Source: Capillimicrobium parvum (GTDB lineage Bacteria; Actinomycetota; Thermoleophilia; Solirubrobacterales; Solirubrobacteraceae). Taken from it: a DNA stretch of 64,000 bases. Below the pieces are notes generated by a model that was not told where the DNA came from, ran no database searches, and was given only the letters and a program-made list of their open reading frames with translations. The position numbers were made by a program, and so were the translations under genes. The DNA is taken from NCBI RefSeq assembly GCF_021172045.1, contig NZ_CP087164.1, positions 4,464,001 through 4,528,000 of the forward strand, given 5' to 3'. Each line of letters begins with the position of its first letter. The first letter of the stretch is position 1. Of the stretch, positions 46,298-51,258 are shown piece by piece.

Positions 46298-47029
46298 GTG
46301 GCGGCGCCCCATCCGCACCCCATCCACCTGCGCCCGACGGCCGAGCTCGCGCCGCGCGTGCTGCTGCCCGGCGATCCCGGGCGGGCGCTGCAGCTCGCGA
46401 CGCTCCTGCTCGACGCGCCGCTGATGTTCAACCACCACCGCGGCCTGTGGGGCTACAGCGGCACGGCGTCCGACGGCGAGCCGTTGACGATCCAGTCGAC
46501 GGGCATGGGCGGGCCGAGCGCCGCGATCGTGGTGTCGGAGCTGGCGATGCTCGGCGCACAGCGGATCGTCCGCGTCGGGACGTGCGGATCGCTGCGCGCG
46601 GACGTCCGGCTCGGCGCCCTCGTGGTCGCGACCGAGGCGCTCGCCGGGGACGGGACGAGCCGCGCGCTCGGGGCCGGGGCCCGGGTGGCCCCCGATCTCG
46701 ACCTGCTCGCGGCGCTGCGGGCGGGCGCCCCCGACGCGGTGTGCGGCCCGGTGCTGACGACCGACGTCTTCTACGGCGGCGAGCTCGACGCGCCGCGGGA
46801 CGCGGTCGCGGTCGAGATGGAGGCGGCGGCGATCTTCCAGGTCGCGGCGAGGACCGGGCTCGCGGCGGGGTGCGTGCTCGCGGTGACCGACGAGCTGGCG
46901 GGCGGGGAGCGCCGCCGGATGGACGACGAGGCGGTCGAGGCCGCAGGCGAGGCGGTCGGGCGGGCCGGGGCCGCCGCGCTGCTGGCGATGGCCCGGAGCG
47001 GCCGGCCCGGGCCTACGCGCCCTCGCTGA
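46298..47029 (+). CDS. Nucleoside phosphorylase (PNP/UDP family)
   Basis: 243 residues. ELAPRVLLPGDPGRALQLATLL, STGMGGPSAAIVVSELAMLGAQRIVRVGTCGSL and AVEMEAAAIFQVAARTGLAAGCVLAVTDEL are the phosphate-, ribose- and base-binding blocks of the uridine/purine phosphorylase family. It splits nucleosides to base and ribose 1-phosphate. Purine versus uridine specificity is not clear from sequence. GTG 46298 is preferred over GTG 46277 because a TACACT -10 box (46284-46289) falls between them. Confidence 0.87.
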   Translation: MAAPHPHPIHLRPTAELAPRVLLPGDPGRALQLATLLLDAPLMFNHHRGLWGYSGTASDGEPLTIQSTGMGGPSAAIVVSELAMLGAQRIVRVGTCGSLRADVRLGALVVATEALAGDGTSRALGAGARVAPDLDLLAALRAGAPDAVCGPVLTTDVFYGGELDAPRDAVAVEMEAAAIFQVAARTGLAAGCVLAVTDELAGGERRRMDDEAVEAAGEAVGRAGAAALLAMARSGRPGPTRPR

Positions 47030-47468
47030 CCTCCAGGCGCTCCTGCTCGCGCGGCTGCGGCGACGGGGAGTCCGGCAGATCCTCGTGCAGCGCGGCGATC
47101 TGGCGGCGCAGCGCGTCGAGGGCCTCTTCGATGTGGCCGAGCCGGGTGTCCAGGCCGCCCGCGGCGCTCGCGTTCGCCAGCGTGGCGAGGCGCTCGTCGA
47201 GGCGGTCGACCCCATCCTCGATGCCCTCGAGCCGCTGGGACACCGATCGCAGCCGGCGCGTCAGGCGCTCGACGTCGGCCGCCGAGGGGATGTTCAGGGC
47301 CCCCATCGCGACCTCCTGGGCCGCCGCGGCCTTCTCGCGCGCCTCGAACGCCCGCGCGATCGCTCCGCTCACCAGCGGGTTCTCGAGCAGATCCTGGGCG
47401 AGCTTGCCCAGCGCGTCCTCTCCCGAGCGGCCGAGCCGCTGCTTGATCCCGTCGCCGCCTTCGGACAT
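47013..47468 (-). CDS. Coiled-coil protein of unknown function
   Basis: 151 residues from ATG 47468. An N-terminal helical segment (LGKLAQDLLENPLVSGAIARAFEAREKAA) precedes a heptad region (VERLTRRLRSVSQRLEGIEDGVDRLDERL) and an acidic, Pro-rich tail. It resembles the 83-residue neighbour in style and may act with it. TACCCT six bases before the ATG suggests leaderless expression. Its 3' end overlaps the phosphorylase gene by 17 bases. Confidence 0.62.
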   Translation of the reverse strand: MSEGGDGIKQRLGRSGEDALGKLAQDLLENPLVSGAIARAFEAREKAAAAQEVAMGALNIPSAADVERLTRRLRSVSQRLEGIEDGVDRLDERLATLANASAAGGLDTRLGHIEEALDALRRQIAALHEDLPDSPSPQPREQERLEVSEGA

Positions 47469-47474
47469 GCCCAC

Positions 47475-47803: not shown

Positions 47804-50389
47804 TTGAACATGATCAGGCGCAAGCTGCTCATTCTGCTGTTCGGCGTCGCCCTCGTGGCGGCGCTCGTCGCATTGCCGACCGGCTCAGCATCCGCCGAGC
47901 AGCGCACGCTCCTGGTCACCCTCCTGGGCGGTCAGCAGATCACCGTGACCGTCGACGTGCCGCCCGGCACGCCGCTCGACCAGATCCAGATCCCCGGGGT
48001 CAACGGCGTGATCGTCTCGGTCTCCGAGATCGGCGGCCCGCCCGCCGCACCCGAGGCGCCGGCGACCGCGCCCGCCGAGACGACCCCGCAGGCCACGACA
48101 CCGGCCGAGACGACCCCGGCCACACCGACGACGCCCACCACGCCGTCGACGACGCCCACGACTCCCTCCACCACGACGCCGGCCACCTCCGGCGACGCCA
48201 AGCAGCCGGCCGGCGGCGATCCGGCGCGCGGCCCCAAGGCCGCGAAGGACGACAAGTCCCAGCGCGAGTCGCAGAAGACCACGACGTCCGACCCTAAGGC
48301 TCAACGCGAGGATGAGACCAAGGCCGACGCCAAGTCCCGGAAGGGCAGGAAGAAGAAGGGCCGCAACGGCATGACCGACCCCCGGGCCGACGGCGGCGAG
48401 CCCACGCCGGCGAACCCGACCTACACCCTCGCCGAGCCCGGCCCGGCGCCGATCGGCGTCCCGAACTTCTTCATCGAGAAGTTCCGCATCCCACCCTTCC
48501 TCCTGCCCATCTACCAGGCCGCCGGCATCGAGTACGGCGTGCGCTGGGAGGTCCTCGCGGCGATCAACGAGATCGAGACCGACTACGGCCGCAACCTCAA
48601 CGTGTCCACCGCCGGCGCGGTCGGCTGGATGCAGTTCCTGCCCTCGACGTGGAAGCAGTACGGCGTCGACGCCAACGACGACGGCCGCAAGGACCCGTAC
48701 AACCCGGTCGACGCGATCTTCGGCGCGGCGCGCTACCTCAAGGCGGCCGGCGCCTCCGGCGACCTGCGCAAGGCGATCTTCGCCTACAACCACGCCGACT
48801 GGTACGTCGACTCCGTCGTCCTGCGCGCCCGGCTCCTCGGCGGCCTGCCCGCGGACTTCGTCGGCTCGCTCACCGGCCTCACCCAGGGACGCTTCCCGGT
48901 CCACGCGCGCGCCGCCTACGCCGACGACATCTCCGAGCGCGAGGCGCTTCGCCGCGTCAAGCGCGGCCAGAACGCCGCGGTGCCCGTCGAGTCCCAGGAC
49001 AACCGGCGCTCCATCGACATCTTCGCCAAGGCCGGATCCCCCGTCGTCGCGGTCCAGGACGGCAGGATCGTCGCGATGGGCCGCTCCAAGCGCCTGGGCC
49101 GCTACATCCGCCTGCGCGACGCCTACGGCAACGTCTACACGTACGCGAACCTGAAGTCGCTCTCCACCGAGTACCCCGTGCCGAAGGCCCCGGCCGCCCC
49201 GTCGGGCGCGAAGGCCGCCAAGCCCGAGCAGGACGCCGCGTCGGCGAAGGAGCCGAAGGATCCGGTTCCCACGGCGCCCGCCACCGCCGGCCGCCAGACG
49301 GCAGACGCCCAGCGCCGGGGCAGGACGCGCCTGCACGCCAACCCGACGCGCCCGAGCGCGAAGAAGCAGACCGGCGCCACGAAGGCGCGCCTGTTCGCCA
49401 ACCCGTCGCGGCCCAACGTCCTCGACGCCGGCGGCCGGGAGCAGATCCTCGACGGCGGCGGCGCGCTCGGCGGCCTCACCACCGTCAAGGGCTACGTCGC
49501 CGGCGTGTACGGGCTCAAGAGCAAGGACGTCGTCCTCAAGCGCCTGAGGGTCGGCTCGCGCGTCATCGGCGGCACGATCCTCGGCCGCGTCGGCCGCCTC
49601 GCCGACGGCCGCTCGCCGCGGGTCACCTTCGCCATCCGCCCGGCGGGCCGCGGCGCGCCGCTCATCGATCCCAAGCCGATCCTCGACGGCTGGAAGCTGC
49701 TCGAGTCGACCGCCATCTACCGCGCCGAAGGCCGCAACGCGCTGACCGGGTCCGGCGACGACCCGAGCGTCGGCCAGGTCCTGCTGATGAGCAAGGACGA
49801 GCTCACGCGGCGCGTCCTCACCGACCCGCGCGTCGAGATCTACGACTGCGGCCAGAGCGACATCCGCAGCGGCGCCGTCGACCGCCGGGTCCTCGCCACG
49901 CTCGAGTTCCTGTCGGCCTCCGGCCTGCGCCCCACGGTGACCAGCATGCGCTGCGGGCACTCGTACCTCACGGCGTCGGGCAACGTCTCCGAGCACTCCA
50001 GCGGCGACGCGGTCGACATCGCGAAGATCAACGGCATCCCGATCCTCGGCCACCAGGGCGCCGGGTCGATCACCGACATCACGATCCGCCGCCTGCTCAC
50101 CCTGCAGGGCGTCATGGAGCCGCACCAGATCATCAGCCTCATGACCTACCCGGGCGCCGACAACACGCTGTCGCTGCCCGACCACGCGGACCACATCCAC
50201 GTCGGGTTCCGGCCGCTCGGCATCGCGGCGTCGCAGAAGTTCGACTCGGTCCTCAAGCCCGGCCAGTGGACCAGGTTGATCGATCGCCTCAATTCCCTGG
50301 ACAATCCGACGGTGTCCTTGCAGCCGTCGAAGTACGCGGTGACGGTCCCTGCGTCCGAGCGGGCGACCTCCGCCCACGACTCGGAATAG
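47804..50389 (+). CDS. Secreted cell-wall enzyme: lytic transglycosylase + degenerate M23 + M15-type peptidase
   Basis: 861 residues. TTG 47804 is nine bases after GGAGGAGGAG; ATG 47810 is the alternative. Signal peptide 1-32. A Thr/Pro spacer (about 83-130) and a Lys-rich stretch precede an MltB-like transglycosylase, with catalytic Glu258 in ETDYG and AVGWMQFLPSTW. Residues 394-455 and 560-632 look like the two halves of an M23 (LytM) domain. Its metal ligands are gone: FAKAGSPV, YTYANL and PRVTFAIRP replace the usual His positions. The halves are split by a 100-residue Ala/Lys linker. Residues 670-805 are an M15/VanY-like peptidase with SEHSSGDAVD (His731, Asp738) and HADHIH (797-799). Confidence 0.82.
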   Translation: MNMIRRKLLILLFGVALVAALVALPTGSASAEQRTLLVTLLGGQQITVTVDVPPGTPLDQIQIPGVNGVIVSVSEIGGPPAAPEAPATAPAETTPQATTPAETTPATPTTPTTPSTTPTTPSTTTPATSGDAKQPAGGDPARGPKAAKDDKSQRESQKTTTSDPKAQREDETKADAKSRKGRKKKGRNGMTDPRADGGEPTPANPTYTLAEPGPAPIGVPNFFIEKFRIPPFLLPIYQAAGIEYGVRWEVLAAINEIETDYGRNLNVSTAGAVGWMQFLPSTWKQYGVDANDDGRKDPYNPVDAIFGAARYLKAAGASGDLRKAIFAYNHADWYVDSVVLRARLLGGLPADFVGSLTGLTQGRFPVHARAAYADDISEREALRRVKRGQNAAVPVESQDNRRSIDIFAKAGSPVVAVQDGRIVAMGRSKRLGRYIRLRDAYGNVYTYANLKSLSTEYPVPKAPAAPSGAKAAKPEQDAASAKEPKDPVPTAPATAGRQTADAQRRGRTRLHANPTRPSAKKQTGATKARLFANPSRPNVLDAGGREQILDGGGALGGLTTVKGYVAGVYGLKSKDVVLKRLRVGSRVIGGTILGRVGRLADGRSPRVTFAIRPAGRGAPLIDPKPILDGWKLLESTAIYRAEGRNALTGSGDDPSVGQVLLMSKDELTRRVLTDPRVEIYDCGQSDIRSGAVDRRVLATLEFLSASGLRPTVTSMRCGHSYLTASGNVSEHSSGDAVDIAKINGIPILGHQGAGSITDITIRRLLTLQGVMEPHQIISLMTYPGADNTLSLPDHADHIHVGFRPLGIAASQKFDSVLKPGQWTRLIDRLNSLDNPTVSLQPSKYAVTVPASERATSAHDSE

Positions 50390-51258
50390 CCAGGCAGTTC
50401 CGCTTCGCGCAGTTCGAGTTCCCGTGGGCGCTGGGACCGCCCGATGGGCGCTACGTGCTGCGCCCCCACGCCGGCGAGGACCCCAGCCACGTCCTCGTGC
50501 TCGGCACGCTGGGCGCCCAGCAGCGCCGGTTCGTGCGCCGGCGCCGGGCCAGGGCGGTCGCGCCGCAGCCCGCTCCCGCGGCCGTCCCGGTGACGCGGGC
50601 GACCGTGATCGACGCGGCGGCCCTCGACAGCGAGGCGGCCGCCCAGCGCTGGCTGGACGGCGCCGACCACGAGGCCCACGTCGCCGCGGCGATCGTCACC
50701 CTCAACCGGGTGCTCCAGGCCCATCGCATCGCGACCGCGGACGCGACCCCGCGCGACGTCGGCCGCGCCCAGGCGCTGGCGGTGCGCGTCGGCTACGGCG
50801 CGGGCGAGGAGGTGGCCGACGGCCGCCACAGCGCCGCGCTCGAGCTGCCGCCACCGTCCGGCGACGCCTCCGGGCTCGTGCCCGGCGGGCGGCGCTCCGC
50901 GGCGCTGCGTCCGCAGGAGCGCCTCGCCGCACTGCTCAGCGGCCGCGATGCCGCGCTCGCCTGCGAGGAGCTCGCCCTGCGCGCCCGGGCCGACCTGGCG
51001 GCGGGCCGCTGGCGGGAGGCCGCCCTGACCCTGCGCGTGGCGGTGGAGGCGGCCCTGTCGGAGCTCGACCCGTGGCGCGACCGCGGCGACCTCGCCACCC
51101 GACTCATCCAGCTGGCCGCCGCGCGCGAGGAGGTGGCCGCCGCCGCGCACCGGGCGCTCGAGGGCGGGTTGGACGCGACCGAGCAGGAGATCGTCGACCG
51201 CGTGCTCAGCTGGCTGGAGGCGGCGCTGCGCGCCCGGACCGCGAGCGGGATCGAATGA
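50386..51258 (+). CDS. Conserved helical protein of unknown function
   Basis: About 290 residues. The N-terminal part (RQFRFAQFEFPWALGPPDGRY, VLRPHAG, HVLVLGTLGA) is aromatic-rich and clearly coding. A middle helical region and a C-terminal all-alpha bundle (DLATRLIQLAAAREEVAAAAHRALE) follow. No ATG, GTG or TTG precedes the N-terminal block. An ATA at 50386 overlaps the TAG of the previous gene (ATAG) and is the likely start; the first conventional one is GTG 50455. I recognise no family. It is co-transcribed with the wall hydrolase. Confidence 0.65.
   Translation: MARQFRFAQFEFPWALGPPDGRYVLRPHAGEDPSHVLVLGTLGAQQRRFVRRRRARAVAPQPAPAAVPVTRATVIDAAALDSEAAAQRWLDGADHEAHVAAAIVTLNRVLQAHRIATADATPRDVGRAQALAVRVGYGAGEEVADGRHSAALELPPPSGDASGLVPGGRRSAALRPQERLAALLSGRDAALACEELALRARADLAAGRWREAALTLRVAVEAALSELDPWRDRGDLATRLIQLAAAREEVAAAAHRALEGGLDATEQEIVDRVLSWLEAALRARTASGIE

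What the first reader, a model, noticed from the sequence alone, without database searches (positions are those of the whole stretch)
47804..50389. Three-module wall hydrolase with a dead, split M23 domain in the middle
An MltB-like transglycosylase, an M23 fold that has lost its metal histidines and is interrupted by a 100-residue linker, and an M15/VanY-like peptidase lie in one secreted chain. Dead M23 domains in other systems act as activators or binding modules. Here one could position or switch a glycan-cutting and a peptide-cutting site on the same molecule.
Basis: partly seen in the sequence, partly recalled or inferred. Interest (0 to 1): 0.6.

Follow-up and report, generated by a model that had tools for sequence, protein, structure and literature searches.

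The report
Cell-wall cutter with dead middle domain
This gene makes a secreted bacterial cell-wall enzyme with an intact sugar-chain cutter at the front, an intact peptide cutter at the back, and between them a third enzyme fold that lost its metal site in the ancestor of a whole bacterial order yet is still maintained, probably as a regulator or docking surface.

Summary
The 861-aa ORF at 47804-50389 encodes a signal peptide, an MltB-type lytic transglycosylase (LT) core with E258, an M23/LytM fold split by an insert of about 100 residues, and a C-terminal zinc-peptidase domain of the LAS fold with an intact site (H731, D738, DHxH to H799). AlphaFold puts both M23 halves into one fold. Neither half contains a His or Cys, so no His/Cys metal site is possible. 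This is not a one-off: 74 aligned homologues, nearly all Solirubrobacterales, share the architecture. E258 is invariant and the C-terminal site is nearly so. No aligned member keeps the first M23 ligand His (66/74 have Arg), so the inactivation is ancestral. The dead domain is under purifying selection at a level similar to the active peptidase. Its insert carries a conserved motif, R-L-F-A-x-P-x-R, in 60/74 members. LT fusions to M23 domains with intact motifs exist in sister families, and two nested paralogues lack the M23. Dead LytM domains that regulate LTs are known (DipM in trans, PrgK in cis), so this is a new, order-wide variant of a known kind. The regulatory mechanism is inferred, not shown. 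"VanY-like" is too specific; MepA and VldE are the nearest solved folds.

The parts
47804..50389 (+). whole gene, 861 aa (TTG start; an ATG two codons in at 47810 is an alternative)
47804..47896 (+). Sec-type signal peptide (RRK, hydrophobic stretch, ASA cleavage motif)
   Evidence: read from the sequence; no predictor was run
48041..48388 (+). low-complexity Thr/Pro/Ala then Lys/Arg-rich linker (about residues 80-195)
48470..48898 (+). lytic transglycosylase core (about residues 223-365), MltB/Slt35-type
   Evidence: Pfam SLT_2 E 8e-17; PDB profile match to Slt35 E 4e-13; VIA Z 12.9 to 1d0k
48575..48577 (+). E258, catalytic Glu of the transglycosylase
   Evidence: 74/74 in the family; aligns with VET of Slt35
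48668..48712 (+). EF-hand-like loop DANDDGRKDPYNPVD (289-303), in register with the Slt35 loop
   Evidence: alignment; calcium binding inferred
48983..49171 (+). first half of the degenerate M23/LytM domain (residues 394-456); R401, D405, N449 at ligand/catalytic positions
49172..49498 (+). insert inside the M23 fold (residues 457-565), mostly disordered with two predicted helices; 53-202 aa across the family
49388..49411 (+). conserved insert motif RLFANPSR (residues 529-536)
   Evidence: 60/74 members versus 0.38 expected by shuffling
49328..49351 (+). second copy of the motif, RLHANPTR (509-516); only the window protein has two copies among 74
49499..49678 (+). second half of the M23/LytM domain (residues 566-625); R606 and T608 in place of HxH
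49769..50233 (+). LAS-fold zinc peptidase domain (about residues 656-810)
   Evidence: AlphaFold pLDDT 86; VIA Z 8.8 to MepA, 8.3 to VldE, 7.1 to 1lbu and Ply500
49994..50017 (+). H731-x6-D738, zinc ligands
   Evidence: 72/74 and 74/74
50189..50200 (+). D796-H797-x-H799, HxH motif with preceding acid
   Evidence: 69/74, 72/74, 72/74; same D-H-x-H order as VldE D372-H373-x-H375 (PMC11667670)

Best explanation
A secreted bifunctional peptidoglycan hydrolase of Solirubrobacterales. Step 1 (shown by sequence and fold, activity inferred): the N-terminal MltB-type core cuts glycan strands using E258. Step 2 (shown by sequence and fold, activity and cleaved bond inferred): the C-terminal LAS-fold zinc peptidase cuts stem peptides or crosslinks. 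Step 3 (shown): the middle M23/LytM domain keeps its fold but has lost the zinc site, and did so before the family radiated. Step 4 (inferred): the dead groove now works as a binding surface, in the manner of DipM or PrgK. It holds or gates one of the two active domains in cis, or a wall partner. The insert next to the groove, with its conserved R-L-F-A-x-P-x-R motif, acts as a tether or plug that controls access. Cutting by the two active sites would thus be coupled and restrained until the enzyme is engaged on the wall.
For: Both active sites are conserved while the M23 site is not: E258 74/74, H731 72/74, D738 74/74, H799 72/74, against position 401 His 0/74, 405 Asp 21/74, 449 His 28/74, 608 His 17/74. 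The M23 halves are kept: mean identity 53% and 60%, against 60% for the peptidase and 30% for the insert; close-pair dN/dS is 0.08-0.25 for the M23 halves in L009/L010, L031/L043, L056/L060 and L012/L013. The insert motif is in 60/74 members versus 0.38 expected. The fold spans both halves, with EnvC (Z 13.6-13.8) and DipM (Z 14.0) among the best matches. Precedents: a dead LytM domain stimulates an LT through its groove (DipM, PMC10336132); a dead LytM in the same chain lowers SLT activity (PrgK, PMC11323569).
Against: No activity, binding or inter-domain contact was tested. Two nested paralogues (L091, L092) go without the M23, so it is not needed for every LT-peptidase fusion. Groove residues at the old ligand positions vary a lot between members, apart from Arg401. 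The dN/dS estimates are rough because third positions are nearly saturated with G/C, and other close pairs run higher (up to about 0.6 for the M23 halves). The domain could equally bind glycan or stem peptide.
Confidence: 0.5

Rival explanations
1. The dead M23 is a peptidoglycan-binding module: it keeps affinity for stem peptides or bridges without cutting and simply anchors the two active domains on their substrate.
For: The groove fold is retained. [quoted passage not shown] No recognised wall-binding domain such as LysM or SH3 was found in the chain.
Against: The groove is variable at the former active-site positions. The conserved insert motif is not explained by substrate binding alone.
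Confidence: 0.25
2. The dead M23 docks a separate partner such as an amidase or a divisome protein, as EnvC and NlpD do, and the two active domains are its cargo.
For: EnvC and DipM LytM domains are among the closest folds. Degenerate M23 folds commonly act as protein hubs (PMC9662197).
Against: No partner gene with a recognised wall function sits beside the gene; the conserved neighbours are a phosphorylase, a coiled-coil protein, an uncharacterised protein and Sir2.
Confidence: 0.15
3. The M23 is a decaying relic or a mere spacer between two enzymes.
For: The ligand positions are scrambled in different ways between members. L091 and L092 dispense with it.
Against: Strand residues are conserved and dN/dS is well below 1 in close pairs. 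The site loss is ancestral, yet the fold has persisted across four families of the order.
Confidence: 0.08
4. The M23 domain is still active through an unusual metal site.
For: Many relatives keep His at 606 (57/74), and some keep 449 or 608.
Against: The window protein has no His or Cys in either M23 half, and no aligned member has His at 401.
Confidence: 0.02

Closest known systems
PrgK of pCF10 (Enterococcus faecalis)
   Same: three wall-hydrolase modules in one chain, one of them a LytM/M23 domain lacking HxxxD and HxH; SLT-like module active; dead domain influences it (PMC11323569)
   Different: order LytM-SLT-CHAP, with a CHAP rather than a LAS zinc peptidase; plasmid conjugation protein; in the passages read, no insert like the one here is described for PrgK
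DipM (Caulobacter crescentus)
   Same: degenerate LytM domain whose groove binds autolysins, including lytic transglycosylases and a putative carboxypeptidase, and stimulates SdpA (PMC10336132); VIA Z 14.0
   Different: acts in trans with LysM domains; not fused to an enzyme
EnvC / NlpD LytM activators (E. coli)
   Same: dead M23 fold used for regulation; EnvC LytM Z 13.6-13.8
   Different: separate activators of amidases, with no hydrolase in the same chain
LT-M23 fusions in sister families of the class (L104, L105)
   Same: MltB-like LT followed by an M23 domain in one chain
   Different: M23 motifs intact (HxnD, xHL, HLH), no insert, no C-terminal LAS peptidase
VldE (Spr1875) MT3 domain and MepA
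   Same: LAS fold; H-x6-D and D-H-x-H as in VldE H301/D308 and D372-H373-x-H375 (PMC11667670); VIA Z 8.3-8.8
   Different: no significant sequence match in PDB; VldE is an L,D-endopeptidase of a different chain, and the bond cut here is unknown

Membership tests
MltB/Slt35-type lytic transglycosylase (SLT_2) | SLT_2 profile above curated cut-off | tested here: met
   61.8 bits against 24.3
MltB/Slt35-type lytic transglycosylase (SLT_2) | catalytic Glu in the E-T/S context | tested here: met
   E258, 74/74; aligned with Slt35 VET
MltB/Slt35-type lytic transglycosylase (SLT_2) | full-length MltB equivalog score | tested here: not met
   47-49 bits against cut-offs of 248-449; only the catalytic core is shared, so MltB-like and not MltB
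Peptidase M23 (active enzyme) | M23 fold | tested here: met
Peptidase M23 (active enzyme) | zinc ligands HxnD and HxH | tested here: not met
   R401, D405, R606, T608; no His or Cys in either half
Degenerate LytM regulators (DipM, EnvC, PrgK LytM) | M23 fold without a zinc site | tested here: met
Degenerate LytM regulators (DipM, EnvC, PrgK LytM) | binds and modulates a wall hydrolase | not testable with these tools
   needs biochemistry
LAS (clan MD) zinc peptidase | LAS fold | tested here: met
   MepA Z 8.8 over 133 residues, VldE Z 8.3, hedgehog 8.2, 1lbu 7.1; scores are moderate but agree in fold family
LAS (clan MD) zinc peptidase | H-x6-D and HxH ligands | tested here: met
   H731, D738, H799
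M15 / VanY carboxypeptidase | M15 family profile above cut-off | tested here: not met
   no M15 hit for the window protein; weak Peptidase_M15_4 in 10/74 members, best E 0.021
M15 / VanY carboxypeptidase | VanY-like fold closest among LAS members | tested here: inconclusive
   VanXY chains score Z 4.6-4.9, MepA and VldE above 8

The most novel reading that the evidence does not exclude
An order-wide family in which a pseudo-M23 domain fused between a lytic transglycosylase and a peptidase acts as an internal coordinator: its insert motif plugs the dead groove and is released on the wall, so that glycan and peptide cutting are switched on together within one molecule.
Probability: 0.2. Interest if true: 0.65.

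Novelty: new variant of a known kind. Interest (0 to 1): 0.42.

Why it matters
Regulation of wall hydrolases by dead LytM domains has mostly been studied in trans in Gram-negative bacteria. Here the regulator-like domain is built between two active hydrolases and has been kept across an order of Actinomycetota. Natural comparison sets exist: LT fusions to M23 domains with intact motifs in sister families, and nested paralogues without the M23. The family therefore lets the cis-regulation idea, and the replacement of one peptidase site by another in the same chain, be tested with defined constructs.

Tried and rejected
An intact zinc site at other positions is rejected: there is no His or Cys in the M23 halves. 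A lone degenerate copy or sequencing artefact is rejected: 74 aligned homologues share the loss. A phage origin of the whole chain was not supported: PHROGs match only the LT part. Conclusions on M23 loss in L091 and L092 therefore rest on FastTree with moderate supports. The genome search failed three times at first. No paper was found on wall hydrolases of this order. A first pass at picking ORFs by overlap took wrong frames for some loci and was discarded (corrected). VanY/VanX were not among the closest folds, though absence from a Foldseek shortlist excludes nothing.

Full report
What is there. The ORF at 47804-50389 (+) encodes 861 residues from a TTG, or 859 from an ATG two codons in; a GGAGGAGGAG lies 9 nt before the TTG. 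The chain begins with a plausible Sec signal peptide, followed by a small conserved beta-rich stretch, a Thr/Pro/Ala then Lys/Arg linker, and three modules. Pfam sees SLT_2 and SLT over 238-330 and the first part of Peptidase_M23 at 402-454. NCBIfam matches MltB models only partially and far below their equivalog cut-offs, so the module is MltB-like but not MltB.

The transglycosylase core. A profile of 74 homologues matches Slt35/MltB in the PDB (E 4e-13), with the catalytic-Glu region and the EF-hand-like loop in register. E258 is invariant in the family. VIA-align gives Z 12.9 to 1d0k.

The split, dead M23. The same profile hits solved M23 domains in two places, residues 399-456 (DipM and Neisseria M23 proteins) and residues 577-624 (StM23, lysostaphin, EnvC). 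AlphaFold on the 668-residue core gives strands at 404-460 and 576-612 with pLDDT mostly 82-96, an insert mostly below 50, and two predicted helices before the second half. Alignments of 116-124 residues to Csd3, EnvC and others run from the first half through to the second, so both halves belong to one fold. At the LytM positions this protein has R401, D405, N449, R606 and T608.

The C-terminal peptidase. AlphaFold (pLDDT 86) gives a LAS fold. The best VIA matches are MepA (Z 8.8, 133 residues), VldE (8.3), hedgehog (8.2), and 1lbu and Ply500 (7.1); VanXY is lower at 4.6-4.9. H731-x6-D738 and D796-H-x-H799 match the VldE site pattern H301/D308 and D372-H373-x-H375 (PMC11667670).

A family, not an oddity. 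A scan of GTDB genomes gave 297 relatives; the best 80 were kept, nearly all from Solirubrobacterales/Thermoleophilia. In 74 aligned members E258 is 74/74, H731 72/74, D738 74/74, D796 69/74 and H799 72/74. The M23 positions are 401 His 0/74 (Arg 66), 405 Asp 21, 449 His 28, 606 His 57 and 608 His 17. The M23 was therefore inactivated before the family radiated. In a sample of 149 genomes of the class, 30 of 33 genomes of the same order have a match; outside the order the matches are to single modules. One genome outside the class (G331) carries the full architecture on a short contig, which could be transfer or mis-binning. The window's own complete genome has one copy and several other M23 proteins that keep HxHF motifs.

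Evolution. In sister families of the class, an LT is fused to an M23 that keeps its HxnD, xHL and HLH motifs (L104, L105). Two LT-peptidase fusions without the M23 (L091, L092) are nested within the family in both the LT and the peptidase trees, so they look like losses. L048 and L055 have in turn lost the C-terminal zinc site. The M23 tree could not place the dead domains next to a particular active relative.

Is the dead domain maintained? Mean pairwise identity is 77% (LT), 53% (M23 first half), 30% (insert), 60% (M23 second half) and 60% (peptidase). In close pairs with usable dS (L009/L010, L031/L043, L056/L060, L012/L013) dN/dS is 0.08-0.25 for the M23 halves, similar to the peptidase (0.12-0.25), and 0.26-0.57 for the insert; other close pairs run higher for every module, M23 halves up to about 0.6. 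The insert is otherwise variable (53-202 aa), yet 60 of 74 members carry [RK]-[LMTV]-x-A-x-P-x-[RK], usually RLFANPxR, against 0.38 expected by shuffling; most of the rest keep a near match. Shuffling ignores relatedness, so the excess is not a probability. The window protein has two copies.

How it probably works. Shown here: two conserved catalytic sites, a conserved dead fold between them, and a conserved motif in the insert. That the insert lies beside the groove follows from its place in the M23 fold, after the YxHL strand; no coordinates were measured. Inferred: the groove is now a binding surface, and the insert a tether or plug. Precedents are DipM, whose dead LytM groove binds autolysins and stimulates the LT SdpA (PMC10336132), and PrgK, where a dead LytM in the same chain lowers the activity of the SLT-like domain (PMC11323569). 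Extra loops at degenerate M23 centres are known (LECT2), and a flexible loop inhibits latent LytM (PMC9662197). Rivals are a substrate-binding role, a trans-docking role and a spacer role; none is excluded.

Neighbourhood. Conserved neighbours are a nucleoside phosphorylase upstream, a divergent coiled-coil gene, and an uncharacterised gene directly downstream (homologues beside about 32-40 of the loci), then Sir2 and fatty-acid oxidation genes. None has a recognised wall function.

Verdict. It is a new variant of a known kind, of moderate interest because it is an order-wide cis arrangement with natural comparison sets.

Noticed in passing
window 50392-51258 (+): A gene directly downstream of the hydrolase, with no Pfam, NCBIfam or PHROG match; homologues sit in the same place in about 32 of the loci, in some starting 4 nt after the stop. 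A conserved operon partner of unknown function.
   Followed up: partly
window 47013-47474 (-): Divergent gene for a small coiled-coil, phasin-like protein, conserved next to the hydrolase in about 40 loci.
   Followed up: partly
window 49328-49351 and 49388-49411 (residues 509-516 and 529-536): The conserved insert motif is duplicated in the window protein, unlike in the other 73 aligned members.
   Followed up: yes
L048 3231-5867 and L055 2-2251: Paralogues that have also lost the C-terminal zinc site (H731 to G, HxH to RxQ), leaving only the transglycosylase site intact.
   Followed up: partly
L098, minus strand, ORF of at least 1178 aa: Distant member with a dead M23 lacking the insert at this junction and with repeat-like sequence, possibly a propeller, after the peptidase.
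   Followed up: partly
L104 781-2466; L105 minus strand: Transglycosylase fused to an M23 domain with intact motifs in sister families of the class; possible active counterparts.
   Followed up: partly
L091 694-2826; L092 413-2761: Transglycosylase joined to the LAS peptidase without any M23, nested inside the family in domain trees.
   Followed up: partly
L016 and L066: Records titled Bifidobacterium breve MAG carry typical Solirubrobacterales-like copies, suggesting mislabelled genome records.
   Followed up: no
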